64,000 nt of DNA from Falsirhodobacter flavus (lineage in GTDB: Bacteria; Pseudomonadota; Alphaproteobacteria; Rhodobacterales; Rhodobacteraceae). A model generated the notes under the pieces. The model was not told where the DNA came from. It ran no database searches and saw nothing but the letters and a program-made list of their open reading frames with translations. The DNA lies in assembly GCA_029846755.1 (NCBI GenBank), contig JARWBI010000008.1:1-64000 (forward strand), read 5' to 3'. The translations under genes and the position numbers were made by a program. Shown here one piece after another: positions 3,092 through 17,412 of this stretch. Every line of letters starts with the position of its first letter. Within the stretch, counting starts at the first letter, position 1.

Positions 3092-4456
3092 TTACGTCGT
3101 CGCAGTTCCGACGATCGCTGCAGCTTTGCGCTTTGCGGCCCTTGCGGCGCCGGAACTCCAACCGTCATTGCGGCGGCCGGTCGGGGTATAAACCGTGGCC
3201 TGCTTGCCCACCTTGAGCGGTTTGGGCGGCGTTCGCTGCAGCTCCATGACATGCGCCAAGGCCGCGCTCAGACGCTTGTTCTCGGTGACGGCCGCGTGGG
3301 TCACGCGCTGCTGGTCCTTGTCGAAGATCCTGTAGGGCAGGGAGATGCCTTTCCAGCGCAGATCGATCCGACCGTCCGCGAAAGCGAACGTCTCGACAAA
3401 TTTGCCCGCAGCGGCCCGCGCAAGATCGCTGTCATTCAGGATCAGGCGCTTGCGCTCGTAGCAGACGACAAGCTGGGCGCTGACGGCGCGTTCGTCGCGG
3501 TAACACAGGATGTCCGCCATGCGGGACGCCGGTTCGTTGACGGGGCGGTGCAGGTTGTCGGGCCGCGCCGGGGACCGGGCGAAGCGGGTGTTGTGATCGG
3601 CCATGAACCCCGCGAGGAAGGCGTTGCCCGCCTCCATGTCGCTGATCCCCGCAAGCCGCAGTTCCTTGACCAGCCGGTCTTGCAGGGTGCGGTTGACGCG
3701 TTCGACGCGGCCTTTGGCTTGCGAGCTGTTGGCGCACAGGATCTCGATGTTCAGCTCCGCCAGCGCGCGGCCGAACTGCGTCATGCCGTGACCCGTCCGC
3801 GCTGCCTGGTTCGGGACGCGGAACACCGTATGCTTGTCGGAATAGAAGGCCACCGGGCGTCCGTGATCGCGCAGATAGCCGTCCAGCGCCTCGAAGTAGC
3901 TGAACGTGCTCTCGCTTTCCACAAACCGCATCTGCATCAATGTGCTGGTAGCGTCGTCAATGAACACCAGCAGCGTGCAGCGCGCGGCCCGATCCTCGAA
4001 CCAGCGGTGGTCGGAGCCGTCTATCTGGATCAGCTCCCCATAGCGTTCGCGGCGCAGGCGCGGTGGGTGGAAGCTGCGGCGGGCCTTGCGGTCGCGCCAA
4101 AGGCCGTCCTCGATCATCCATTTGCGCAGCGTCTCGCGCGACACCTTCAGCCCATGCCGCTCGGCCAGCTTCTCGGCGGCCAGTGCCGGGCCAAAATCGG
4201 CGTAGTGCTCACGCACCAGAAGCAGCGCCAAGTCGTGACGGCCAGTGCTAAGCTGGTTATTCGACGGTCGGCCGCGTAACCCGTGCCGCACGGCACCAGC
4301 GCCATTCTCGCGATAGCGCCGAAGGAGCCGCTGCACCTGACGTGGACTGATCGCCAGCACCGCCGCCGCCGTGCATATCCGCATGCTACCGTCCAGAACG
4401 CGCGACAGCACCTCGACACGCTGAAGTTCGTGTTCGCTCATCACAACAAGTCCCAT
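3092..4456 (-). CDS. ISNCY-type transposase with an integrase core
   Basis: The product of about 454 residues has an N-terminal HTH (CTAAAVLAISPRQVQRLLRRY), a second DNA-binding segment with AEKLAERHGLKVSRETLRKWM, and an rve-type DDE core (LIQIDGSDHRWFED, then LVFIDDATS, FYSDKHTVFR, and ANSSQAKGRVERVNRTLQ). This domain order is that of the ISNCY group transposases. The ATG at 4456 is used; an upstream in-frame start at 4483 is possible. Length is normal for the family, so the protein may be intact. Neighbouring genes on either side are unrelated, as expected for an insertion. Confidence 0.85.
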   Translation of the reverse strand: MGLVVMSEHELQRVEVLSRVLDGSMRICTAAAVLAISPRQVQRLLRRYRENGAGAVRHGLRGRPSNNQLSTGRHDLALLLVREHYADFGPALAAEKLAERHGLKVSRETLRKWMIEDGLWRDRKARRSFHPPRLRRERYGELIQIDGSDHRWFEDRAARCTLLVFIDDATSTLMQMRFVESESTFSYFEALDGYLRDHGRPVAFYSDKHTVFRVPNQAARTGHGMTQFGRALAELNIEILCANSSQAKGRVERVNRTLQDRLVKELRLAGISDMEAGNAFLAGFMADHNTRFARSPARPDNLHRPVNEPASRMADILCYRDERAVSAQLVVCYERKRLILNDSDLARAAAGKFVETFAFADGRIDLRWKGISLPYRIFDKDQQRVTHAAVTENKRLSAALAHVMELQRTPPKPLKVGKQATVYTPTGRRNDGWSSGAARAAKRKAAAIVGTATT

Positions 4457-4545
4457 CCGGGGCCACCTCTGCGAAACCGACAAGAGGCGACAGGTTAACT
4501 TTGCTGGATAGCGACAAGTCTACTTTGCGCTTACAGGTTTGTGGC
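3092..4545. mobile_element. ISNCY-like insertion sequence, ends uncertain
   Basis: Upstream of the transposase start, the 4480-4540 stretch carries a doubled GACA motif (gcgacaggttaacttt and gcgacaagtctacttt), which looks like transposase-binding repeats at one end. No matching copy is visible just beyond 3092, where the sequence instead runs into a short match to a dispersed intergenic repeat (GAGCCCATACCGG on the minus strand, about 3068-3086). The left end may therefore be truncated. Confidence 0.45.
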
Positions 4546-4741
4546 TTAGAATCATGCTTATGTAATCATAAATCTTCGATGAGAGCGGCCTATTAGTGTG
4601 GGGTCGCAAATCGCGTTCAGCTGCCAACCCGCTTCCGACGAGACCGATCGTCAGACGGCACCTTGCGTCGTGCTCGGCACTTCGCTTAACTATGGCCACC
4701 GGTCTGCAGTTCGAATACAATGCAGGTTTGGAGGTAGTTCC

Positions 4742-5728
4742 TTGGCCCGCGGCGAACTGATGAAAAAATTGCTTGCCAGCTACGGCCGGGACGAAGAGTT
4801 CCGCGCCGTTGTCGAGCAGATCATCACCGATGAGGAGAAGAAAAACAACAACGTCCTCGCCCGTTCTTTGCGCAAAACCCTAGACAACATTGGTCACACC
4901 GCCGCACCACAGACGGCGGGGCTCTCGCGGCTTTTGCCCTTCCCTGATGAAGCCAAGGAATTCATTCAACGTATCGATCCGAGGCATACGTCCCAAGACA
5001 TCGTGCTGTCGCACGAGAACCTGGAGCAGTTCGTCGGACTGATACAGGAGTTCCGGCAAGCTGATCGCCTCAAGCGCCATGGGCTATCCGTGCGATCAAA
5101 GTTGTTGTTTTGTGGCCCACCCGGCACCGGAAAGACACTTTGCGCCGAGGCTTTTGCGGCTGAGCTCGGTCTGCCCTTGTTTCATGTCCGCCTAGACAGC
5201 CTGATCTCTTCTTATCTGGGAGAGACCGCGAGCAATATTCGGAAGACCTTTGAGTTTGCCCGGCGGCAGCCTTGTGTGCTGTTCTTCGACGAATTCGATG
5301 CTTTGGCACGGTCCCGAGATGAGTCCGGTGAACATAATGAACTAAGACGGGTCGTCAATAGCCTGTTGATTTTCATCGAACAAATTGCACCGAGCGGATT
5401 TCTGATCGCCGCGACAAATCTTGATCGTCACCTTGATCCAGCAATCTGGAGGAGGTTCGACGAAGTGGTCTGGTTTGAATTGCCTGACGCAGGAATGATC
5501 AGAAAGTATCTCGCACACGCTTTTAAGAATACGAAGATTGCTTTTGATCCTGACGCATTTATTGCTGAGTTAGACGGGTTTTCTTATGCTGATTTGGAGA
5601 AGGTATGCATTCAGGCTTTGAAGCTTTCGATACTCGAAAGCAGCAAACAAGTGAGCGATACCCAGTTCCGCGCAGCCTTGCGGCAGGCAAAGCGCCGCCG
5701 CAAACGCGAGGCACAGGTCGAGAGCTGA
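4742..5728 (+). CDS. AAA+ ATPase partnered with a subtilisin-like protease
   Basis: The 328-residue product has a helical N-terminal region, then a single AAA+ module: Walker A GPPGTGKT at about 125-132, Walker B LFFDEFD with D183/E184, sensor 1 in FLIAATNLDRHLDP, and an arginine finger region AIWRRFDEVV. The C-terminal lid ends in a basic tail. The TTG at 4742 is chosen because GGAGG lies about 7 bases upstream and the protein then begins MARGEL-MKKLLASY, as family members do. It is followed after 18 bases by an S8 protease, a recurring pair on mobile elements. It may unfold or gate substrates for the protease; that role is inferred. Confidence 0.85.
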   Translation: MARGELMKKLLASYGRDEEFRAVVEQIITDEEKKNNNVLARSLRKTLDNIGHTAAPQTAGLSRLLPFPDEAKEFIQRIDPRHTSQDIVLSHENLEQFVGLIQEFRQADRLKRHGLSVRSKLLFCGPPGTGKTLCAEAFAAELGLPLFHVRLDSLISSYLGETASNIRKTFEFARRQPCVLFFDEFDALARSRDESGEHNELRRVVNSLLIFIEQIAPSGFLIAATNLDRHLDPAIWRRFDEVVWFELPDAGMIRKYLAHAFKNTKIAFDPDAFIAELDGFSYADLEKVCIQALKLSILESSKQVSDTQFRAALRQAKRRRKREAQVES

Positions 5729-5746
5729 AGTGCGGCGGGGTGACCA

Positions 5747-8077
5747 TTGCCGCCACTTGATCATTTGCAGCTCATTCGCCTGCCAGAAACTCTCCTCCGT
5801 AGAAAAACTGGATTTCCTGGCCCCACCCCGCAGCGCGGTGGCGGCTACGGTCGGCGGGTCAGGGCCGAAGTGGTCGCAGCTGTTCAAGAGCAGCTTCGCC
5901 ATCGCCCCGCGCAATTCGTGGATCCATCGCTCATTCTTCGCGTCAGAATGGAGGGAATGCTCCTTGAGGAAGAATGGGATGCATTGGGCTTGACCCTCCT
6001 GTCAAGCGATGAGGACAAGAATGTCGTCCTCTTTTCCTCTGCCGGTGATCTTGCGGCGCTGATGCAGCGGCTGGATGCTTTTGACGGCCCGATTCCGCAA
6101 GGTCAAGCAAGCCGACGTTACGAGAGCTTTGTTTCCCGCATCGAAAACGTCGGGACACTTTCTCCGAGAGATCGCCTCGGTATCCGTTTTCGGGAAGCCG
6201 GAATCACCGAAGCTGGTGATCTGCAGGACGGCGATATCTATATCGTCGACATCGAACTCTGGGATTTCGGCGGGCGTGGTGTTCGCGAGCGCAAGGCTGC
6301 GGAAATCGAGGCCTTCATCGAAAACCTTGAGGGGGTCGTGCATGATCTGTATGTCGGCCCATCGATTACTCTTATGCGCGCAACAGCACCCGGTCAGGTG
6401 CTGCGTCCACTGCTTTCCGTTACCGAGATCGCCTACATAGATCTACCTCCGGTTCCGGACCTCGAAGCTCACGAGCTCATCCGAATGGAACTCCCCGCCG
6501 CTCCTGCGATCCTGCCTGCTGATGCAGATGCTCCGGTGATTGGCATTCTGGACAGTGGCCTGAACGAGCACCCTTTCCTAGAGCAAAGCATCGCTGGCCT
6601 CGCTGCATTCCCCCCCTCACTCGGCCTTGCCGATGTTTGGGGTCACGGCACGCGGGTGGCCAGCGTCGCCGCGTTTGGGGACTTGAGAAACCACCCCCCA
6701 GAGCACCCGCTTCAGCCGGCTGCCCGGCTTGTTTCCGCCAAGGTCGTTCAAGACAACGGTGCCTTCTTTGAACGTCGAACGCTGCCGGGTCAGATGCGCG
6801 AAGCAATCACACGGCTGCATGCTGATTACGGCTGTAGGATTTTCGTGATTTCGCTCGGAGACACCCGCGCTCGGAATGAATCTGGGCGCGTTGGCCCATG
6901 GGCGGCGACCCTCGACGAGCTCGCCCGCGAACTCGACGTTCTCATCTTTGTCTCAGCCGGCAATCGCATCCCTCGAGGGGGAGCTTCAGTTGAACAGGGC
7001 ATAACCGAATATCCAGGCTATCTTCTGGAGGCGGCTAACCGGCTCTTCGAACCTGCAGGCGCTGCAAACATTATCACAGTAGGGTCTTTGGCAAATGGCA
7101 CAGGCCTTGGGATTCGGCACCAGCACGACGCTCACGTGAGGCCCATCACCAATTTTCTGGAGCCGTCGCCTTTCACGAGGACCGGCCCGGGGGCCGGGGG
7201 CGTGAGGAAGCCTGACTTCGTTGATATCGGTGGGACCTTGGTGTTCGATGCGCCCTCCGCTCGACTACAAGGGGCTCCGATCTTTCCCGAGGCGGGCGTC
7301 ATCACGCTCAACCATCAATATCTACGGCAGCTGCTGACCAGCGGAAACGGGACCTCCTACGCCGCCCCCATGCTGGCGAACAAGACGGCTTACTTGATGC
7401 GTCGCTTTCCCTGGGCCAGCGCCAATCTCATCCGTGCGCTCTTAGCCGGGGCCGCTGCTCTGCCCGAAGCCGCCGATCGGGCGCTCGCGGCAATCGCACC
7501 CGATGAAAAGACCCGTATCTGCGGTTACGGTCAGGTCGACACCCTTCGGGCAGCCTATTCGGACGACCACAGAGTGGTTCTCTTCGCGGAAGAGCGTCTG
7601 GAGATAAACCAGTTCGCCGTTTACCGGGTTCCTATCCCTCAAGATTTCCAAGGAAATGGACGCCGGACAATTCGGGTTTCACTCGCCTTCGATCCTCCGG
7701 TTCGGCGCACGCGGGCGGAATACATTGGCACGAAGATGAACTTTCGCCTGCTGCGCGGCTGCGAGATAGATCGCGTGTTCGAACACTTCCGCGCACGAGG
7801 AGCGGAAGAGGGTGATCCCCCGGACATTCCCGATAGGTTCAAATGTGCTCTGGAACCGACGCCCAGCAGACGCGATGGAAACACGCTGCAAACAGCAGCG
7901 CAAACCTATCAGCGCGACACGGATGCATATGGCGACGAATACTATCTCGTTGTGCGTTGCGTCGGAGGCTGGGCCGAGGGGCAGGAAGTTTTTCAAAACT
8001 TCGCGGTAACCGTGGAACTCGAGCATCAGCCCGGAATCCAACTCCACGCCCGACTGCGGCAGCGACTTAGAGTTTGA
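5747..8077 (+). CDS. S8 family (subtilisin-like) serine protease paired with the AAA+ ATPase
   Basis: The 776-residue protein has a complete subtilase triad: Asp269 in GILDSG, His300 in WGHGTRVAS and Ser537 in NGTSYAAP, with an oxyanion Asn in FVSAGNR. There is no signal peptide, so it should act in the cytoplasm, unlike secreted subtilisins. About 240 N-terminal and 230 C-terminal residues flank the catalytic domain; their role is unknown. The start is a TTG at 5747, 18 bases after the ATPase stop, so the two are almost certainly co-transcribed. The pair is known from mobile elements and defence-rich regions, but its target here is unknown. Confidence 0.87.
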   Translation: MPPLDHLQLIRLPETLLRRKTGFPGPTPQRGGGYGRRVRAEVVAAVQEQLRHRPAQFVDPSLILRVRMEGMLLEEEWDALGLTLLSSDEDKNVVLFSSAGDLAALMQRLDAFDGPIPQGQASRRYESFVSRIENVGTLSPRDRLGIRFREAGITEAGDLQDGDIYIVDIELWDFGGRGVRERKAAEIEAFIENLEGVVHDLYVGPSITLMRATAPGQVLRPLLSVTEIAYIDLPPVPDLEAHELIRMELPAAPAILPADADAPVIGILDSGLNEHPFLEQSIAGLAAFPPSLGLADVWGHGTRVASVAAFGDLRNHPPEHPLQPAARLVSAKVVQDNGAFFERRTLPGQMREAITRLHADYGCRIFVISLGDTRARNESGRVGPWAATLDELARELDVLIFVSAGNRIPRGGASVEQGITEYPGYLLEAANRLFEPAGAANIITVGSLANGTGLGIRHQHDAHVRPITNFLEPSPFTRTGPGAGGVRKPDFVDIGGTLVFDAPSARLQGAPIFPEAGVITLNHQYLRQLLTSGNGTSYAAPMLANKTAYLMRRFPWASANLIRALLAGAAALPEAADRALAAIAPDEKTRICGYGQVDTLRAAYSDDHRVVLFAEERLEINQFAVYRVPIPQDFQGNGRRTIRVSLAFDPPVRRTRAEYIGTKMNFRLLRGCEIDRVFEHFRARGAEEGDPPDIPDRFKCALEPTPSRRDGNTLQTAAQTYQRDTDAYGDEYYLVVRCVGGWAEGQEVFQNFAVTVELEHQPGIQLHARLRQRLRV

Positions 8078-9094
8078 TCAGCCAGTGCCCTTCGCGAGAT
8101 CGAAGCGAATCTTATCGAGCGCTGCCATTGCCGTCGTAATGCGGTGGGGTGCCATGCCAACCTCATAGTCGTCGCGTGAGACGCCGCTGCGCGACTGTCC
8201 GCAAAGCGCCAACGCATGGTCACCCGCAAGACCCGCCATCGCCAGCTCGGTATGCACGAGCGTTCTGACAATGTGGGGCGAATGGCCCACCACCTTCTTG
8301 AAGGCATAGGAAAACGCCTCCGGCTGACACGGAGTTTTGCCGTCGTAAGAAAACAGCGGCCTGCCAATGGAGGAGACATAGATCAGGTCCCGGTCCAACT
8401 CTCCGGAAGGATCAAGCAGACGATCGATAAATACATTCAGGCAATCTGGTATGTCGACGAGGGCCACGTAGCCTGTTTTACTGGAGCGGTAGTCGAACGC
8501 CCAGGACGCGCCGTTGAGCACAAAATTTTTGCCGATCTCGATGGCCAGAGCGTCCTTTCGCCTCATCTGCTCGCGCGACAGGAGCGCACAGATCGCAGCA
8601 AGGAAGAAGCATCTTTCTTTCTTGACGGGCACGGACTCGAGCAGACCTCGTTGCAACTCTGCAACAGCAAGGTTGAAGATTTGATCGAGTGTCATCGGGT
8701 GAGCGGCCAGCAGTATGACCTTTCGCTTCGGATCGCTCCGCGCCGCATTCCGGTGGAAGCGCCGAAGCTTCGCGATCTTCTCGAGGTCTGCATCTGCAAC
8801 GCCATACGCAGCAGCGAAGTAGCCGAAGAACTGCAGATATACCTTCTTGGAAATGTTCTTGATCGCCGAGTGATGGATATGGAGGAGGTAGGCATGGATG
8901 GCCTGGCTGCTCATCCCAACCGCCATGTTGCGATCGGTGCAATACTTTGCGAATCGTAAGACGCATGCCTGAACGCGCAGGAGGATGTCAGGTGCCAGCT
9001 GCCGCTCTGTGAAGTCGACATGTTCCATGGATCTGAGGGCAGCGCAGAAATCCTCGGGAAGGTCTTGAAAGAGAAACGATGAGCGGCGCGTCAT
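8078..9094 (-). CDS. Tyrosine-recombinase-like protein, divergent
   Basis: The 338-residue product has an N-terminal helical SAM-like region and a C-terminal domain that aligns loosely with phage integrases. HIVRT stands in for the H-x-x-R box, LALCGQS for the LGH box, and the Tyr of DDYEVG is in the position of the nucleophile. The canonical RHT context is altered, so catalytic ability is uncertain. It overlaps the upstream recombinase by 4 bases, so the two are translated together. Its stop codon abuts the stop of the S8 protease on the other strand with no gap. Confidence 0.7.
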   Translation of the reverse strand: MTRRSSFLFQDLPEDFCAALRSMEHVDFTERQLAPDILLRVQACVLRFAKYCTDRNMAVGMSSQAIHAYLLHIHHSAIKNISKKVYLQFFGYFAAAYGVADADLEKIAKLRRFHRNAARSDPKRKVILLAAHPMTLDQIFNLAVAELQRGLLESVPVKKERCFFLAAICALLSREQMRRKDALAIEIGKNFVLNGASWAFDYRSSKTGYVALVDIPDCLNVFIDRLLDPSGELDRDLIYVSSIGRPLFSYDGKTPCQPEAFSYAFKKVVGHSPHIVRTLVHTELAMAGLAGDHALALCGQSRSGVSRDDYEVGMAPHRITTAMAALDKIRFDLAKGTG

Positions 9095-10785
9095 GTGTTT
9101 CTCCTCGACAGAGATGCCAAGGCCCCTTGAGCCGCCTTATGTCGACGCGATTCGTCGATGAATGCGTAGTTTCGCTCCGCGACCTCCTCGGAGATGCCCA
9201 AATGTGCGGCAATGACCTTCATGTCCAGCTCTGCATCGTTGAGCAGAAGTGTTGCATGGGCGTGTCTGTTGACGTGGGGGGTCATCGGGATATTTTGGCT
9301 CCGGGAAGATTTATTCCAGATGCGCCGCAGCCGCTGCTTGTTCATCCCGCAGAACAGAAGATCCGGATCGTTGCAGTGGTTGTCATCGCGGAGGAGCAAC
9401 GGACGGATTTTGTCGCGATACCACCGGATGATTGCAGCCGGGTCCGCTCCCGACGTGGCTTTCAACTCTATATTGTGGTGCTCATAGTCGTTTTTGACGA
9501 CCATGGCCCGCGTCGAGATGAACACGCTCCTGCCCCGAAACCAGATGTCAGGCGCCGCACCATTGAGTGTCAGATTTTCCGTGCTCTTGATTCGCAACGG
9601 AAGATGTCGCCATACCGCACTGAGGCACGCTGCAGTTCCCCAGTTGGTGATGCGATATCGATCATGGGTTCCGGCCGTGTCGTAAAGGGCAAGCTTGGAC
9701 TTTGCCGTCTCCCAGAGCGTTCCCGGGAGATTAAGGTAGGTTTCTTTCATGTCGGGCCGCAACATGAGCGCGTGGCACCACGCTTGCCGGGATGCCGACA
9801 TCTGCTTTCGGCTGTCGAAATAGCTGGAATTCGGCAGATCCCTCAGCCTCTTCAACTTAACTGAGTCGAGGCCTTTCTCTTCGAGAAATGCCGTTAAGAA
9901 CCTCAACCGGCTTAGCACGGTCACAGGTGCCAGTTTCTTCCACGGCAGGGCTCCAGCCACCTCCGCGCGAATGACACCGACGATAAGATCGACGTCACAG
10001 ACGACGTCGAGGCCCGAGTGTTCACTGCGTTCGGGATGCAGAGTTACTCCGGCTGTGTAGAAGTAGTTGATTGCATCCGCGATGCCGTAGGCTGTTTCAT
10101 CCGTCACGCCATCGCCGCTGATGTCATCGATGCCCAGGAAACCGGAGCGTTTCTTGGCAACCCAATCATCGCGAGCCGACGCCAGATCTTCCGGTGCCGG
10201 GATCCTCCAAGCGACATTTCGCCGCCGCAGAGCATCGAAGTCGTAAGACGCCGGCGTGGGGCAATCGAGCTCGTCAGCCATAGCCTCCAGACGTCTCCAA
10301 CCCGTGATCAGGGTGCGTGCCGTGGTTGCGCGTTCACAGCCTCTGGTCATGCTCACCAGATGCTGACCATCCAGATCGCCAGGCTGGAGCTTTCGTTTCC
10401 GGGATTCTCGAGCAAGCGACTTCACTGCTATAGCGCGAAATACACCGTAGATCTCGTCCGCCTTCGCGTTGACCTTCGTCCAGTCATCATCATATCCAGC
10501 CGGATCGACCGGATCGATGCAGGCCAAATAGCCTTTCATCATGGCGATGCATTGTTTCCGCCAGACCTGATATGATTTCATCGAGCTCCACTGCGAGAGA
10601 ATCCCAATCGGCGGGTCCTTCGGCCATCTGCTCTCGAATATCGCCACATCGCAACTCAAGGAGGCAAGTGGCATATTTGAGATCCGTGCCAATTTACGAC
10701 CAGACCCTCTGATTTTTCTATCATAGTTGGCCGAGAAGACAATATTCTTCACGAAATGATCGATTGCATCTTGCATAGTTTTCAT
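9091..10785 (-). CDS. Tyrosine recombinase/integrase-like protein
   Basis: The product of about 564 residues is long for an integrase. The C-terminal domain has the expected motifs: HVNRHAHATLLL for H-x-x-R-H, VIAAHLGISEE for the LGH box, and NYAFID with the nucleophilic Tyr. An arginine corresponding to the first catalytic residue was not located with certainty. The ATG at 10785 has AGGGGG about 6 bases upstream; an in-frame ATG at 10809 lies before that site. It is the first gene of a two-recombinase unit, which may form a heteromeric recombinase that moves or inverts DNA. Confidence 0.78.
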   Translation of the reverse strand: MKTMQDAIDHFVKNIVFSANYDRKIRGSGRKLARISNMPLASLSCDVAIFESRWPKDPPIGILSQWSSMKSYQVWRKQCIAMMKGYLACIDPVDPAGYDDDWTKVNAKADEIYGVFRAIAVKSLARESRKRKLQPGDLDGQHLVSMTRGCERATTARTLITGWRRLEAMADELDCPTPASYDFDALRRRNVAWRIPAPEDLASARDDWVAKKRSGFLGIDDISGDGVTDETAYGIADAINYFYTAGVTLHPERSEHSGLDVVCDVDLIVGVIRAEVAGALPWKKLAPVTVLSRLRFLTAFLEEKGLDSVKLKRLRDLPNSSYFDSRKQMSASRQAWCHALMLRPDMKETYLNLPGTLWETAKSKLALYDTAGTHDRYRITNWGTAACLSAVWRHLPLRIKSTENLTLNGAAPDIWFRGRSVFISTRAMVVKNDYEHHNIELKATSGADPAAIIRWYRDKIRPLLLRDDNHCNDPDLLFCGMNKQRLRRIWNKSSRSQNIPMTPHVNRHAHATLLLNDAELDMKVIAAHLGISEEVAERNYAFIDESRRHKAAQGALASLSRRNT

Positions 10786-10967
10786 ATCAGCCCCCTGCCC
10801 CGATTCCAACCCTGTTGGAGATCATGCCACAACACGGTGAGTTTTAGGAGTTAAATCAGCGTTGGGGGATTTATGATATAGGGTATGGCTCACGTTGATA
10901 TCAAACGGACAACATGAAGATCAAAGAGCCCAAACTGATACCAAAACGCATCTTCGCACATCAAACG

Positions 10968-11381
10968 CTACTTGATGCGCATACGACTGTGGGAAGCGTA
11001 GCGCAAAGCCGGGTCGAAAAACATACGTAGATCCGGCGCGTTGTTCGGACTAAACGGGTGATAACGATGATCTCCGTCCAATATGTATATGATATCGAAT
11101 GAATAAATCTTGCGACTGTTGTATATCGTGGACTTGCTTAGTCCCAAGCATCGCGCGACTTCCGTTGTCTTCAGCAGCTTCGGGACCAGCGGGTCACCCT
11201 TCTCCATGAGACTGATAGCCTCCTCCTCCGGCAGACCGTCGACTTTCATGAGCACGTCCATAATCAGATACCTGGGCCTCGCGTGTCCAGAAACCTGGAC
11301 TCCAAACCGCGATACGATCTTGTTCACGGATTTTCTACTCACCTGCCAATGCTCTGCCAACTCATCCTTGTATGCGAACAT
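10968..11381 (-). CDS. Small protein with two helix-turn-helix segments
   Basis: The 137-residue protein is not recognised by name. Two HTH-like segments are visible: ELAEHWQVSRKSVNKIVSRF near the start and LLKTTEVARCLGLSKSTIYN in the middle, the latter like excisionase/MerR helices. It has a good ribosome site (GGGAG) before the ATG. It lies upstream of the two recombinases on the same strand, separated by about 180 bases, and 77 bases downstream of a GTCCTA operator. It may be an excisionase or recombination-directionality factor, but this is inference from position and fold only. Confidence 0.6.
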   Translation of the reverse strand: MFAYKDELAEHWQVSRKSVNKIVSRFGVQVSGHARPRYLIMDVLMKVDGLPEEEAISLMEKGDPLVPKLLKTTEVARCLGLSKSTIYNSRKIYSFDIIYILDGDHRYHPFSPNNAPDLRMFFDPALRYASHSRMRIK

Positions 11382-11457
11382 TCAACACTCCCAACCTGAG
11401 AAACGAAAGACCATGCGCTTCAGAAACGCGGTGGGTGTGCTTGGCATGAGAGAGAAA

Positions 11458-11478
11458 TTGTCCTAAACATTAGGACAA
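11458..11478. promoter_or_regulatory. Operator-like palindrome GTCCTA-N5-TAGGAC
   Basis: The sequence forms a perfect 9-base inverted repeat (TTGTCCTAA, spacer ACA, TTAGGACAA). The same core with the same 5-base spacing occurs next to the XRE repressor gene at 17251-17267. It lies 77 bases before the HTH/recombinase genes, so it probably controls them. Confidence 0.6.
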
Positions 11479-11588
11479 GCTGGAAATGGAACTTGAATAT
11501 TATATTCGCAATGCGCTTCTAGTAGATTGTTGAAGGGGAGCGAACGATGATACTCAAGGAAGGCTGGCTAGTCGGGGACCTCATGAAT

Positions 11589-11618
11589 GCGAATAAATGG
11601 TTCATATGATTTATTCGC
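11589..11618. repeat. Perfect 10-bp AT-rich inverted repeat
   Basis: GCGAATAAAT at 11589-11598 and ATTTATTCGC at 11609-11618 flank a 10-base spacer. The form (two inverted arms around a short core) is like a tyrosine recombinase crossover site, and it sits beside two recombinase genes. It is not followed by a T run, so it does not look like a terminator. It could also be an operator. Confidence 0.45.
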
Positions 11619-12119
11619 GAACCCCAAATTTTTTCACATCAGTCAATTGGGTCGTCAAGTTTCTGTGATACGGCTCTTCCGGGCTTGGTAAGGCACAAAG
11701 AGAGCCTCGAAATCTCCAGCTTCATCGACGAAATGCGGAACCGCCGAGAGACTGATTCGGGTCTTGGGCGATTTTCGCCTGCGCGCAAGGCAAGAAGATC
11801 CGCGCCAAGAATTCGGTTTTCACATTGCGGCGGGGGAAGTGACACTCCCCGGCCCGTAACGTCTTCAACGATCGGTCTCTACCTTCGCAAGTTGACTAAA
11901 AGGCACTAAGATAGTTGTTACGACGTTGCCCGCCGAGGGGTGCTCTTTGCCTGCAACGGCGCATCGAGGCTACGATCTCGCTGGCCGCCTCTGCCCATCG
12001 AGAGCGCGAAAAACAAAGTCGTTGCCCATCGAGCCATGTCGTGTCATTCATTCTAACGGTCGGCACCGCTTTCAGCGGTCCGCAACGTTAAGTGCCAAAA
12101 AGGCCGCGCCGAGGGTGAG

Positions 12120-13391
12120 ATGAACGAGCAGCTGCGACAAGCCGAGACAGCCGGGGTCGGTGTTGACACTGTCAGCCGCTTTGCCGATGCGCTCGCTCGC
12201 TCTCTCGATGAGGAGATGCGAAAAGCCTATCGTCCGACCGAACGTAAGACATTAAGGCGTTTCAGCGTAGGCGAAGTTGCCGAAATCACCGGCATCAGCG
12301 CCAACAACCTGCGTCAGCGGCACAACGACAAGACACTTCCTCACGTCGAGACGGACTCTCGCGGTCACAGAACGTATGCAGCCACGGATATACAGGCGAT
12401 CCGCGAGGTGATGGCAAGAACCAGTAAAACGGGAGATCTGTTCAGACCCGGGCGGCGAGGCCCCGAAGATCATTTGCAGGTTCTTTCTGTCGTAAACTTC
12501 AAAGGTGGATCATCAAAAACCACCACCTCCATCCACCTCGCCCAGCGATGGGCGTTGCGTGGGTATCGAGTCTTGGCAATCGATCTTGACCCGCAGGGCT
12601 CTCTCTCGACCTTCTTCGGGCTGCGTCCCGAGCTCGATTTCGAAGAACCTGATGCACTGACCATTTACGACGCCATCTGTTATGATGACCCTGTCGCCGG
12701 CGTGCGGCAACGTCCTCTTCGGGATGTCATTCGTAAGACCTACTTTCCGAATTTGGACATGGTCCCGGCGAGTTTGCTCTTGTCTGAATACGAGACCGAG
12801 ACTGCGCACGCCTTGAGCGCGAATGCGGTGGCACGTGAGCACAATGTCCAACCGCCTCACGATATCTTTGCAGTTCGCCTAGCAAAGGCGCTAGGCGCGG
12901 TCGAGGCCGACTATGATCTCGTTGTCATTGATTGTCCCCCGCAGCTCGGATTCACAACGCTAAGCGCTCTTGCAGCCTCCACCGGACTTATTGTGACGGT
13001 TGTGCCTGGGATGCTTGATGTCGCGTCAATGTCCCAATTTTTGAAACTCGCGTCTGAAACCATGCGCGCAGTGCAGGGCGCAACGCATACGCAAGACGAG
13101 TGGGACTTCCTTAAGTTCCTTGTCACTCGATACGAACCGGCAGACGGACCACAAATCCAGATGTCCAGTTATCTTAGGCATATCCTCGGGGGCCACGTGT
13201 TGAAGGAGGCAATGCTGAAGTCGACTGCGATAAGCGACGCGGGGATGACTCATCAAACCATCTACGAGGTAGATCCGAAACAGCTCGTTCGGAGCACGTT
13301 GGAGCGAGCGGTAACCTCTATGAACGCCGTGTCCAACGAGATCGAGAAAGTAATACAAGCTGCTTGGGGGAGATCGGCAAATGGGGCGTAA
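12120..13391 (+). CDS. repA: RepA, ParA-type partition ATPase of a repABC replicon
   Basis: The 423-residue protein has an N-terminal MerR-like HTH (RRFSVGEVAEITGISANNLRQR, about 48-70) and a ParA ATPase domain with the deviant Walker A KGGSSKTTT beginning at Lys128, a Walker A' segment VLAIDLDPQGS and Walker B VVIDCPPQLG. These are the features of RepA, which partitions the plasmid with RepB and represses the operon. Length is normal. It overlaps repB by 11 bases, as is usual for this operon. Confidence 0.95.
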   Translation: MNEQLRQAETAGVGVDTVSRFADALARSLDEEMRKAYRPTERKTLRRFSVGEVAEITGISANNLRQRHNDKTLPHVETDSRGHRTYAATDIQAIREVMARTSKTGDLFRPGRRGPEDHLQVLSVVNFKGGSSKTTTSIHLAQRWALRGYRVLAIDLDPQGSLSTFFGLRPELDFEEPDALTIYDAICYDDPVAGVRQRPLRDVIRKTYFPNLDMVPASLLLSEYETETAHALSANAVAREHNVQPPHDIFAVRLAKALGAVEADYDLVVIDCPPQLGFTTLSALAASTGLIVTVVPGMLDVASMSQFLKLASETMRAVQGATHTQDEWDFLKFLVTRYEPADGPQIQMSSYLRHILGGHVLKEAMLKSTAISDAGMTHQTIYEVDPKQLVRSTLERAVTSMNAVSNEIEKVIQAAWGRSANGA

Positions 13392-14451
13392 GCTATTTGA
13401 CAGGATCGCCGCGGGTAGCGACGCATCAGATGGCAAGGCTTCTGATGAAGTGAGCACTTCTCAAGGGCGCGCTCGCCCCGTCCAGCGAATGGCGGACAGC
13501 TTGCTCGATATGTCGGCGAACTCAATCCGCCTCATTCCACTCGAGAGCATAGAGTCCTCCAGTATCAAGGACCGGATCAGCGCCGACGATGACGTTGAAG
13601 CACTTGCTGCCTCTATTGCAGCTCACGGACAGCAAGTTCCGATCTTGGTGCGCCCCCTGCCCCACGCGTCTGACCGCTTCCAAGTGGTCTATGGTCGGCG
13701 TCGAATAGCGGCCATCAGATCGCTTGGCGCCGGTCGAACGGTTAAAGCGATTGTAAGGACACTCAAGGACGAAGAAGCCATTGTTGCCCAAGGGCAAGAG
13801 AATAGCTTGCGCCTCGATCCTTCGCATATTGAAAAGTCGTTATTTGCCCGCGAATTGAGAGAGCAAGGTTATTCTACGAGTGTCATCGTCGACGCTCTTG
13901 GAGTCGATCGGTTTACGATCTCTCGGATGATAAAGGTCGTGGACAACATTCCTCTCGCCATCATCGAACTGATAGGAGCAGCACACGACATTGGTCGACG
14001 TCCCTGGAAAAATATGAGCGACCTGCTCGGAAGCGTAACTTTTGACGCTGTCTCGGTTGTCACCAGCGCGATCAATGAAAAGGCTGGGAAATTATCCAGT
14101 TCTGAGCGCTTTCACACTGCATTCTCCGCTATTCGCAACGAAGTATCGCTGTTGGAACAACAGCAGTTGAGCCATGGCTCAACTGCTGTTGTGCTCGGAC
14201 AGGATGATGCACGGCCGAAGGTCGAATTCACATCGACACGAGACAAAGTTTCGATTGTCGTTTCCACGAAAAGTTCGCAAGCGTTTCACGCGTGGCTTAC
14301 TGAGAATTACGAACAGCTCATCCAGGATATGTTAGTTCGTTTTGAAGAACGCGAACTCCAGACGGCGCAGCAAATCCCTGTGAGTCCGGAAGCGTCGGTT
14401 CGACTCAAGACCGAGAAACCCTCAAAGAAAGGAGCACCCGAGAACCGGTAA
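13381..14451 (+). CDS. repB: RepB, ParB-type centromere-binding protein of a repABC replicon
   Basis: The 356-residue protein has the ParB N-terminal domain (VEALAASIAAHGQQVPILVRP and VYGRRRIAAIRSLG), a QGQEN box, and a central HTH with YSTSVIVDALGVDRFTISRMI. It should bind parS-type palindromes and load onto DNA, working with RepA in segregation. Its start codon lies inside the end of repA. Its own coding sequence contains a perfect 36-base palindrome at 14157-14192 that matches two other palindromes downstream. Confidence 0.95.
   Translation: MGRKLFDRIAAGSDASDGKASDEVSTSQGRARPVQRMADSLLDMSANSIRLIPLESIESSSIKDRISADDDVEALAASIAAHGQQVPILVRPLPHASDRFQVVYGRRRIAAIRSLGAGRTVKAIVRTLKDEEAIVAQGQENSLRLDPSHIEKSLFARELREQGYSTSVIVDALGVDRFTISRMIKVVDNIPLAIIELIGAAHDIGRRPWKNMSDLLGSVTFDAVSVVTSAINEKAGKLSSSERFHTAFSAIRNEVSLLEQQQLSHGSTAVVLGQDDARPKVEFTSTRDKVSIVVSTKSSQAFHAWLTENYEQLIQDMLVRFEERELQTAQQIPVSPEASVRLKTEKPSKKGAPENR
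14157..14192. promoter_or_regulatory. parS: parS-like palindrome inside repB (36 bases, perfect)
   Basis: The core GTTGAGCCATGGCTCAAC is an 18-base palindrome centred on CCATGG. In this copy the symmetry extends without mismatch to 36 bases, though it codes for ordinary RepB residues (QQQLSHGSTAVV). The same core recurs at 15917 and 16714. repABC plasmids carry short palindromic centromeres near or in the operon, so these are the best candidates. Confidence 0.75.
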
Positions 14452-14607
14452 TATAGAAGAGCCCCCCGAAGTCACCCTCGGAGAGCCCCATCTGCGTCCT
14501 TAGCAAGAGCAGATTTACCAGCGATCCGTAGCAACCGTCAAGAGCAGCCGATTCGGCTGACGGTATTCTGCGCGATATTTTTCGCAAAGTTAGGTGCTCA
14601 TCTCGGA
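14452..14607 (-). ncRNA. repB-repC intergenic region, probable site of the countertranscribed incompatibility RNA
   Basis: repABC plasmids encode a small antisense RNA in this exact gap, which represses repC. The gap is 156 bases and holds a strong hairpin: arms ACCGTCA and TGACGGT at 14534-14564 with an inner stem AGCCG/CGGCT. A second weaker inverted pair (CCGA...TCGG) lies near 14468-14485 and could serve as its terminator. The RNA itself is inferred from position; the promoter was not identified. Confidence 0.45.
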
Positions 14608-15723
14608 TTGGCCACCGTTTCTCCTCGTGAGAAAATGATGCAACAACAGATTTTCACATCCCCTGCCCCGCGCGGCGGGTCTCAACAGCACACCCGTGCG
14701 ACAACGAAAAATGAGCTTTGGAGTGTTTTGCGTTCTATCGTGAAGGCCCGGCATATCCTGGGCTTGAAACAACCTCCATTGACCACTCTCAGGGCCCTCC
14801 TTAGCTTTGTGCAAGACACGGATCGTCTTACGGTTTTCGCATCGAACAAAGAACTGTGCATGAGAGCCGAAGGAACAAATGAACGCACCCTTCGTCGCCA
14901 TCTTGCCAAACTTGCAGATGCCGGGCTAATCCGCCGATTGGACAGTTCGAACGGCAAAAGGTTCACCATCAGCCAACCGGGTGGAGAGCGGATAGACTAC
15001 GGTCTCGACCTAAGTCCTCTTTACGCCCGGAGACATGAACTTCACTCCGCTGCCGCCGAAGCCGACGAAGAAGCTGAACTTATCAAATTCTATCGCCGCA
15101 AGCTTTCCGGCTTGGTATACTCCTGTGAGCGTCATGGCGTCGACCACGAACTGGGCAATGACACGCGAGCCATCGCACGCCGAGTCTCAGGTTCCACCGC
15201 CCTTAAACAGTTGTGCGAACGCCTCGTCAAACTTCTGGAACAGACCCTGATCGATGAGGAAAAGCTGAACGAACCCGCGGTCGAGCCGAACGCGAAAACC
15301 GACATGACCGATGAAATGTCCGCCAATGCCAGTCATATTGTCCGGCACATAGACAAGACGAGAATCATAAATATAGATTCTAAGGAAGGGATCTCAGAGA
15401 AGGGAATGGCGTCGGATGATGATCTCTCACTCGCCCAACTGATGGCAAGTTCACCGGCAGCTATGGCTTACCTTACTGACTATCCGAAGGACTGGCGGAC
15501 GATGGAGGACGCATGTTTCCGTCTAGCGAAATGGGCCGGCATCAGCACTACAGTAACTGCTGCCGCAGTCGAAAAGACCGGAAGGCGTCACGTCGCAACG
15601 CTCATTTGCGGTATCTTCGAACGTCTCGATGCCATTAGGAATCCTGGGGCATACTTTGCATCGATGATAACCAGAAGCCACAGCACTCCACCTAAACGGC
15701 CCCGCCGAAGGCACATACATTGA
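14608..15723 (+). CDS. repC: RepC, replication initiator of a repABC replicon
   Basis: The protein of up to 371 residues has the RepC N-terminal domain, with NERTLRRHLAKLADAGLIRRLDS as the DNA-binding winged helix and RIDYGLDLSPLYARR, then the C-terminal RepC domain ending in AIRNPGAYFASMI. RepC starts replication, and in this family the origin lies within repC itself. The TTG at 14608 gives 371 residues; an ATG at 14635 is an alternative that would remove nine. It lies 156 bases after repB, as in other repABC operons. Confidence 0.93.
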   Translation: MATVSPREKMMQQQIFTSPAPRGGSQQHTRATTKNELWSVLRSIVKARHILGLKQPPLTTLRALLSFVQDTDRLTVFASNKELCMRAEGTNERTLRRHLAKLADAGLIRRLDSSNGKRFTISQPGGERIDYGLDLSPLYARRHELHSAAAEADEEAELIKFYRRKLSGLVYSCERHGVDHELGNDTRAIARRVSGSTALKQLCERLVKLLEQTLIDEEKLNEPAVEPNAKTDMTDEMSANASHIVRHIDKTRIINIDSKEGISEKGMASDDDLSLAQLMASSPAAMAYLTDYPKDWRTMEDACFRLAKWAGISTTVTAAAVEKTGRRHVATLICGIFERLDAIRNPGAYFASMITRSHSTPPKRPRRRHIH

Positions 15724-15916: not shown

Positions 15917-15934
15917 GTTGAGCCATGGCTCAAC
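15917..15934. promoter_or_regulatory. parS: parS-like palindrome, second copy
   Basis: This is an exact copy of the 18-base core GTTGAGCCATGGCTCAAC, about 190 bases after the repC stop, with a GTTGAGCC half site just before it. Confidence 0.7.
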
Positions 15935-16712: not shown

Positions 16713-16732
16713 AGTTGAGCCATGGCTCAACT
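16713..16732. promoter_or_regulatory. parS: parS-like palindrome, third copy
   Basis: This third copy of the 18-base core is symmetric over 20 bases. It lies about 800 bases after the second, completing a set of three spread over 2.6 kb around repB and repC. Confidence 0.7.
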
Positions 16733-16899: not shown

Positions 16900-17229
16900 T
16901 CATCGCTTTTTGCTATGCGGACTCCTGATGGCTCCTCGGGTAAAATTATTGATCAAGTCATTTGGTTCAACGGCTCGAACGACGACGGCAAACAAGTCCT
17001 CAGGATCAAGATCGAGCACGCGAGCAAGTGCAATCAGCTCAATGACGTCGATCCGGCGATGTCCATTCACGATGTTTAGCGCCGTGTTTGGAGAGCATCG
17101 TAAAGCCTTTGCGAGGTCGCGGATTGTCCAGCCCTTTGCACTGCGAGCTGCGCTGAGGGCGTCACTAAGCGCCTGAAACCCCGAACTACGAATGGTGTTT
17201 GTCATGATGATCCCGGTGTCTGTTGACAC
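16900..17229 (-). CDS. XRE family HTH repressor
   Basis: The protein of up to 109 residues carries a classic XRE/Cro HTH: LSDALSAARSAKGWTIRDLA then LRCSPNTALNIVNGHRRIDVIELIALARVLDLDPEDLF. The C terminus is short and has no ligand domain. Either the GTG at 17229 or the ATG at 17205 could start it; the ATG gives a protein of 101 residues that begins MTNTIRSSGF. A GTCCTA-N5-TAGGAC palindrome lies just upstream, between this gene and a divergent gene at 17413, so it probably represses itself and, through the copy at 11458, the recombinase genes. Confidence 0.8.
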   Translation of the reverse strand: MSTDTGIIMTNTIRSSGFQALSDALSAARSAKGWTIRDLAKALRCSPNTALNIVNGHRRIDVIELIALARVLDLDPEDLFAVVVRAVEPNDLINNFTRGAIRSPHSKKR

Positions 17230-17241
17230 CGGTTAGCCCAC

Positions 17242-17267
17242 GTCCTAGTAGTCCTAAAAAATAGGAC
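17242..17267. promoter_or_regulatory. Operator-like repeats at the XRE gene
   Basis: GTCCTA occurs at 17242-17247 and again at 17251-17256, and TAGGAC at 17262-17267. The last two form the same GTCCTA-N5-TAGGAC palindrome as at 11460-11476. The position right upstream of the XRE gene suggests an autoregulatory operator. Confidence 0.6.
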
Positions 17268-17412
17268 AACTGCTGGTAGGCTCGATGCGAAAAACACCGC
17301 GAACGTAAAAGAATGCCGAGCGCAGGACGCGGCCGATGACGCCGTCTCGCAGCGTCGAGTCCATTCCTCAGGCGTTCGCTCAAACACCGCAGCCAGCGAA
17401 ACACATGACACC

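What the first reader, a model, noticed from the sequence alone, without database searches (positions are those of the whole stretch)
4742..11381. AAA+ ATPase and cytoplasmic subtilase convergent with an HTH gene and two recombinases
Seen: an ATPase and an S8 protease with all catalytic residues but no signal peptide, followed with no gap by two overlapping recombinase-like genes and an HTH gene on the opposite strand. AAA+/S8 pairs are known in mobile or defence contexts. The link to a two-recombinase unit with a 564-residue member is not one I can name. Inference: the block may be one mobile or defence module, in which the protease acts on the repressor or a recombinase, or on an invader protein, when the ATPase is triggered.
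Basis: partly seen in the sequence, partly recalled or inferred. Interest (0 to 1): 0.72.

Follow-up and report, generated by a model that had tools for sequence, protein, structure and literature searches.

The report
Known defence pair beside recombinase operon
A plasmid-like piece of bacterial DNA carries a known two-gene defence and plasmid-stability pair (IetAS) packed tightly against a separate three-gene DNA-recombinase operon that recurs in related bacteria; the two look like neighbours, not one machine.

Summary
In detail: an AAA+ ATPase (4742-5728), an S8 protease with complete catalytic residues and no signal peptide (5747-8077), then, with no gap and on the other strand, two overlapping tyrosine-recombinase genes (RecS 8078-9094, RecL 9091-10785) and a helix-turn-helix gene (10968-11381), beside a repABC replicon. 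The AAA+/S8 pair is IetAS, a known anti-phage and toxin-antitoxin pair. HTH-RecL-RecS is a separate conserved operon: none of 45 other RecL loci read has IetAS in the stretch fetched (up to about 10 kb a side), and 18 other IetAS loci lack RecL/RecS. The operon resembles, without belonging to, known multi-recombinase elements (SE, Tn554, GInt): in one clade it has a conserved left end, and shared DNA stops at the RecS stop codon. More defence families lie near it than near 20 arbitrary loci (control not matched for genomic islands). IetAS sits at the point where other DNA begins in that clade, so 'defence cargo of a recombinase element' is open but unproven: no ends were found around the window copy.

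The parts
4742..5728 (+). ietA-like AAA+ ATPase (antitoxin-like partner of IetS)
   Evidence: PADLOC IetA 1.6e-84; Pfam AAA 6.3e-35; motifs
5747..8077 (+). ietS-like S8 (subtilase) protease, cytoplasmic
   Evidence: PADLOC IetS 1.9e-109, residues 31-774 of 776; catalytic D/H/N/S
8078..9094 (-). RecS, smaller tyrosine recombinase
   Evidence: no Pfam match alone; R, K, R, Y conserved in 38 aligned; hhalign to RecL, probability 97.9; AlphaFold model poor
9091..10785 (-). RecL, large tyrosine recombinase (564 aa)
   Evidence: R, K, H, R invariant and Y in >=90% of 42 aligned; profile matches XerC-like, XerD and XerA chains, best 4.5e-12
10968..11381 (-). HTH protein, excisionase-like by weak matches, first gene of the recombinase operon
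   Evidence: Pfam HTH_23 4.1e-7; profile matches solved small DNA-binding proteins 6ama/6amk, Gp37 and an AlpA-family protein; PHROG excisionase 1.3e-4
11458..11478 (.). 21-bp palindrome TTGTCCTAA-N3-TTAGGACAA upstream of the HTH gene, candidate operator
   Evidence: second copy with 2 mismatches at 17249-17269; mean 0.00 matches in 100 shuffles
12120..15723 (+). repABC replicon next to the block (context)
   Evidence: NCBIfam RepA 8.6e-154, RepB 2.9e-76, RepC 4.9e-55
3092..4483 (-). ISNCY transposase on the far side of ietA (context)
   Evidence: NCBIfam transpos_ISNCY_2 6.1e-142

Best explanation
Two separable modules lie side by side next to a repABC replicon. (1) IetAS: the AAA+ protein IetA restrains the cytoplasmic subtilase IetS; when IetA fails (phage attack, or loss or competition of the plasmid) IetS damages the cell. 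This would protect against phage and stabilise the plasmid. Shown here: family membership, catalytic residues, pairing. From papers on relatives: toxin/antitoxin roles and maintenance (SGI1), association with phage resistance (Pseudomonas). Inferred: trigger and target. (2) HTH-RecL-RecS: an operon of an excisionase-like HTH protein and two tyrosine recombinases that most likely act together on the ends of a mobile element. Shown here: conserved order, conserved catalytic residues, behaviour as a discrete unit in one clade. Inferred: joint action of the two recombinases, role of the HTH protein. The protease need not act on the recombinases or the HTH protein.
For: IetA/IetS PADLOC matches, IetS over nearly its full length. 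IetAS without RecL/RecS in Paracoccus aminovorans (76% nt over 4730-8077), in 8 of 8 plasmids opened and in 9 of 9 other genomes of the order with IetS (in one, L107, only an IetS fragment at a contig end). 5 of these 18 loci have a RepA-, RepB- or RepC-like gene in the fetched stretch. SGI1 homologues: protease toxic, ATPase antitoxin (PMC5006074, passages). RecS follows RecL in 41 of 45 other loci, 3 of the 4 others being cut by contig ends and one followed by an IS; the HTH gene is found by profile in 25 of 45 and in L077 by alignment; four of the 45 helped to build the RecS and HTH profiles. IetA/IetS in 0 of 45. Of 390 genomes of the order, 4 have both RecL (E<1e-50) and IetS, and only the window's has them adjacent. 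In the L143-L154 clade shared DNA ends at or next to the RecS stop codon.
Against: NCBIfam equivalog cut-offs for IteA/IteS are not reached (248.7 of 510; 95.2 of 900 bits), so function may have drifted. Both modules occur in the same genome more often than independent draws give (4 genomes, p 0.005), though the window's genome, picked for having both, is one of the four. Other integrase genes are annotated near IetAS in 4 of the 8 plasmids. No ends could be found for the window's recombinase unit. No experiment was done.
Confidence: 0.72

Rival explanations
1. IetAS is cargo of the recombinase element: as in GInts, the recombinase operon forms one end and acquired DNA starts at its last stop codon; IetAS was picked up there.
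For: In the L143-L154 clade L143 and L153 share left flank plus module (95.4% over 13 kb) and part at +3041, the stop codon of RecS in L143; L144, L147 and L149 share the module and, with some indels, about 28 kb to its right with L153 but have other DNA directly to the left. PADLOC families near modules: 157 (110 genes downstream) and 231 (107 upstream) against 12 for 119 genes at 20 arbitrary places. In L152 (Phaeobacter) a CBASS SAVED-HNH effector gene ends 14 bases from the RecS stop, convergent as IetS is. GInts carry defence systems in E. coli (PMC10121019, passages).
Against: Genes upstream of the module hit more PADLOC families than those downstream. 16 of 20 neighbour proteins scanned singly had no PADLOC match at 1e-5. 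The first downstream gene is convergent in only 20 of 38. No right end was found beyond cargo in any locus. The control places were arbitrary, not other islands. L153's RecS stop lies at +3059, 18 bases past the point where it parts from L143.
Confidence: 0.35
2. The recombinase operon is a plasmid-maintenance (dimer resolution) device belonging to the repABC backbone.
For: A second HTH-RecL-RecS operon in the same genome (contig C20, L077) is also divergent from a repABC, with a similar gap.
Against: Homologues of the window's RepA/B/C near only 2 of 45 other RecL loci, one of them L077 (other replicon types not sought); 6 of the 40 loci fetched lie on contigs above 1 Mb.
Confidence: 0.15
3. 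The five genes are one defence system in which the ATPase-triggered protease frees or destroys the HTH repressor or a recombinase.
For: Tight packing; convergent stops with no gap; known AAA+/S8 defence family.
Against: 0 of 45 and 0 of 18 co-occurrence in the two directions.
Confidence: 0.04

Closest known systems
IetAS (pTiC58 ietAS; SGI1 sgiAT; PADLOC IetAS)
   Same: AAA+ ATPase followed by S8 protease in one operon; near-full-length profile match
   Different: below the NCBIfam equivalog cut-offs; function of this pair not tested
SE, strand-biased circularizing integrative elements (intA-tfp-intB-srap; PMC10214605, passages)
   Same: [quoted passage not shown] inverted end sequences in three members of one clade
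   Different: two recombinase-type genes, not three; HTH gene first; SE proteins were not compared directly
GInt (ginABCD; PMC5385486, passages)
   Same: recombinase operon at one end with other DNA starting at its last stop codon (one clade here); defence genes nearby
   Different: two recombinases, not three; small DNA-binding gene first, not last
Tn554 (tnpA-tnpB-tnpC)
   Same: two tyrosine recombinases, one large, plus a small protein (as described in PMC10214605)
   Different: small gene first here; no Tn554-named match in NCBIfam; no direct comparison made
RIT (recombinase in trio)
   Same: adjacent tyrosine recombinase genes
   Different: two, not three; RecL is longer than the 315-410 aa given in PMC10214605

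Membership tests
IetAS | adjacent AAA+ ATPase and S8 protease matching the IetA and IetS profiles | tested here: met
   PADLOC IetA 1.6e-84, IetS 1.9e-109
IetAS | catalytic D/H/S of the protease and Walker motifs of the ATPase | tested here: met
NCBIfam equivalog IteA/IteS (the narrower group) | score cut-offs of 510 and 900 bits | tested here: not met
   248.7 and 95.2 bits; filed as a divergent member of the wider IetAS family, not as this equivalog
IetAS | protease toxic, ATPase antitoxin, phage resistance | not testable with these tools
   known from relatives only (PMC5006074 and PMC11878078, passages)
GInt | three recombinase-type genes plus small HLH gene at the end (ginABCD) | tested here: not met
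   two recombinases, HTH gene first
GInt | foreign DNA starts at the last stop codon of the operon | tested here: inconclusive
   seen in the L143-L154 clade; in the window IetS abuts RecS but no comparison locus exists
SE | intA-tfp-intB-srap gene set | tested here: not met
   no third recombinase-size gene with the two recombinases in the window
SE | imperfect inverted end repeats | tested here: inconclusive
   both ends in 3 of 12 clade loci; over 36 loci of the family, window included, 6 hits against 7.25 by chance
Tn554 | TnpA, TnpB, TnpC homologues | tested here: inconclusive
   no Tn554-named NCBIfam match; no Tn554 protein compared directly
RIT | three recombinases of 315-410 aa | tested here: not met
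   two genes, 338 and 564 aa

The most novel reading that the evidence does not exclude
HTH-RecL-RecS is an undescribed class of tyrosine-recombinase mobile element of Alphaproteobacteria that inserts, carries and exchanges defence operons directly behind its RecS stop codon; in the window it holds IetAS beside a plasmid replicon and so helps to build plasmid-borne defence islands.
Probability: 0.33. Interest if true: 0.68.

Novelty: new variant of a known kind. Interest (0 to 1): 0.47.

Why it matters
How defence islands with unexplained recombinases move is an open question (PMC10121019, passages). A conserved two-recombinase operon with an excisionase-like partner, found in at least 31 of 390 sampled genomes of one order and in a defence-rich setting, is a concrete, testable candidate. 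The IetAS part itself is known.

Tried and rejected
Tried without result: profile search of genome and viral collections with the first RecL alignment (no stretch conserved enough); single-protein scans with RecL (no relatives); no further scan of viral contigs was made. Genus search: 1 of 7, the window's own. Repeats around the block: one search listed pairs without a control and none stood out; exact matches between 11382-12119 and the left flank reached 11-12 bases, and 13-14 over 124 kb of the contig (no shuffle control); inverted pairs against shuffles were at chance, and the best one (left arm at 12026; right arm at 8058-8068 by my recount from the printed sequence) lies inside ietS coding sequence. 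Inverted ends flush with the RecS stop over 36 loci: 6 against 7.25 expected, so the ends of L143, L145, L148 are not general. AlphaFold of RecS: mean pLDDT 49.4, not used for a fold search. Rejected: RecS as a pseudogene (catalytic residues kept); the recombinases as a working part of IetAS (no co-occurrence).

Caveats on counts: one search scored at most 3 candidates a genome, so 31 genomes is a lower bound. PADLOC tables for gene sets list families, not members, and only the first 25 of 157 and of 231. The Fisher tests (p 1.8e-4 for 19 of 217, 0.012 for 10 of 217, each against 0 of 119) rest on my reading of family names at E<1e-30; some names may hit one protein. Neighbour sets came from 40 of the 45 loci (L007, L042, L048, L059, L060 left out as cut or incomplete), 3 genes a side, fewer at contig ends, called by a simple longest-ORF rule. 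Of the 15 loci, L155-L157 were left out (more distant or partial).
Full report
Observation. The block is as described. An AAA+ ATPase gene (TTG 4742-5728) is followed by an S8 protease gene (5747-8077) with D269, H300, N406 and S537 and no hydrophobic N-terminus. On the other strand RecS (8078-9094) abuts the protease with no base between the stop codons, RecL (9091-10785, 564 aa) overlaps RecS by four bases, and an HTH gene lies at 10968-11381. The neighbours are an ISNCY transposase (3092-4483) and repABC (12120-15723). The contig is 132,203 bp. The host is taken to be of the order Rhodobacterales, because a genome listed as of the same family (G655) has a contig of the same length as one named Roseicyclus marinus.

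The pair is known. PADLOC's IetA and IetS profiles match at 1.6e-84 and 1.9e-109, the latter over residues 31-774 of 776. The NCBIfam equivalogs match but stay below their cut-offs, so this is a divergent member. tblastn found IetS relatives in 349 of 72,556 plasmid records, 40 of them with one place covering at least 80% of the protein. Paracoccus aminovorans has the pair at 76% nucleotide identity over 4730-8077. Relatives on SGI1 act as toxin (protease) and antitoxin (ATPase), with the pTiC58 pair named as closest (PMC5006074, passages); the pTiC58 paper itself was seen only as a title in a reference list and was not held. A Pseudomonas study associates IetAS with phage resistance and calls the mechanism unknown (PMC11878078, passages). 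That IetAS came to notice as an anti-phage system in a 2020 survey is recalled, from no call.

The recombinase operon is something else. A RecL profile from the window and five Rhodobacterales plasmid loci, searched in 390 genomes of the order, gave matches below 1e-50 in 31 genomes, the window's among them (the tool's own tally of 307 at 1e-3 includes many short matches to the C-terminal catalytic part). I fetched 40 stretches around matches and read them with the five plasmid loci. RecS follows RecL in 41 of 45; L048, L059 and L060 are cut by contig ends and in L007 an IS follows. The HTH gene precedes RecL by profile in 25 of 45, and in L077 by alignment. L003, L004 and L006 were in both building sets, L005 in that of RecS and L007 in that of HTH. 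RecL keeps R, K, H and R in all 42 aligned sequences and Y in at least 90%; RecS keeps R, K and R in all 38 and Y in at least 90%, but where relatives have a second histidine the window reads Q (by eye). The RecL profile finds XerC-like, XerD and XerA chains. RecS is tied to RecL by profile comparison (probability 97.9), but its own PDB search gave only weak hits and its model was poor. The HTH profile finds small solved DNA-binding proteins and an AlpA-family regulator and, weakly, PHROG excisionases. In a sample of the class, 10 of 385 genomes match at 1e-20, the window's included.

They do not travel together. IetA or IetS occurs in 0 of 45 other RecL loci. RecL or RecS occurs in 0 of 18 other IetAS loci: 9 genomes with up to about 10 kb a side (one has only an IetS fragment at a contig end), 8 plasmids and Paracoccus. 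Integrases of other kinds are annotated near IetAS in 4 of the 8 plasmids. Four genomes of 390 have both modules, more than independent draws would give (p 0.005; the window's genome was picked for having both), but only the window has them adjacent. Five of the 18 IetAS loci have a RepA-, RepB- or RepC-like gene nearby, in keeping with a role in plasmid stability.

What the operon does. A clade with many close copies was found with a RecL alignment (15 loci); twelve were compared. Pairs with different surroundings share about -1640 to -1790 up to about +3041 to +3118, counted from the RecL start; the RecS stop codon starts at +3041 in nine and at +3059 in L144, L146 and L153. L143 and L153 share 13 kb (left flank plus module, 95.4%) and part at +3041. 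L144, L147 and L149 share the module and, with indels, about 28 kb to its right with L153, but have other DNA directly to the left; in L147 the flank of L143 and L153 lies about 3.4 kb further out. The sequence GGAACCATCTCCTGC lies near the left limit in 12 of 12 (at most one mismatch in 11, three in L154), which close kinship alone might keep; an inverted copy with 1-3 mismatches lies flush with the RecS stop in three, L143, L145 and L148. This is the picture of a mobile unit with one end before the HTH gene and other DNA starting at the RecS stop, as described for GInts (PMC5385486, passages). Against generality: over 36 loci of the family inverted ends at that place are no commoner than chance (6 against 7.25), and none above chance was found for the window.

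Defence neighbourhood. Up to three genes a side of 40 modules were scanned with PADLOC: 110 downstream genes hit 157 families, 107 upstream genes 231, with names including CBASS cyclase and effector, GmrSD-like, AbiD, AriA, restriction-modification of types I, II and III, Ssp and MADS. 119 genes from 20 arbitrary places in genomes that carry the operon hit 12 families, the best at 2.9e-13. The control is not matched for genomic islands, so this shows a defence-rich setting, not that the operon causes it. Twenty neighbours scanned singly gave four with matches (L152 CBASS effector, L080 and weakly L077 methyltransferase, L066 PD-Lambda-2-like) and 16 without. In L152 the CBASS effector gene is convergent with RecS at 14 bases, the nearest parallel to the window; over 38 loci the first downstream gene is convergent in 20, so there is no rule of orientation.

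Literature. Searches for ietAS, AAA/subtilase defence (9, 121: nothing), GInt/ginABCD (27), recombinase in trio (28), pTiC58 (70), and combinations with Rhodobacter, Tn554 and Alphaproteobacteria listed no paper that, by title and start of abstract, describes an HTH-plus-two-recombinase operon of this kind; most subscription journals are not held. One abstract says that recombinases are often beside anti-phage genes with unknown function (PMC12529663, start of abstract in the listing). Comparisons with SE and GInt rest on passages of PMC10214605 and PMC5385486.

Verdict. Ordinary part: IetAS. Unnamed part, of a familiar kind: the HTH-RecL-RecS operon. The link between them in the window is adjacency at a place where, in one related clade, other DNA begins.

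Noticed in passing
window 11458-11478 and 17249-17269; small regulator gene 16900-17205 (-): A 21-bp palindrome lies before the HTH-RecL-RecS operon and, with two mismatches, before a small regulator gene that looks XRE-type by eye (no family search run); none expected by chance. The regulator may control both.
   Followed up: partly
G000 contig C20, L077 5599-13807: The same genome has a second HTH-RecL-RecS operon, again divergent from a repABC replicon.
   Followed up: partly
window 14157-14192, 15917-15934, 16713-16732: Palindromes with the core GTTGAGCCATGGCTCAAC (its outer bases vary) around repABC, possibly parS sites.
   Followed up: no
L143, about -926 to -237 from the RecL start at 10540: An open frame between the HTH and RecL genes matches part of the RecL profile (2.3e-12) in several clade members, as if a deleted recombinase relic.
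   Followed up: no
L052 6737-7628, L062 6742-7713: In one subgroup a further gene overlaps the end of RecS in the same direction, a possible fourth member of the operon.
   Followed up: partly
PDB 9i5v chain 14: A chain labelled RaiA matches both recombinase profiles weakly; the label or the sequence may be misassigned.
   Followed up: no
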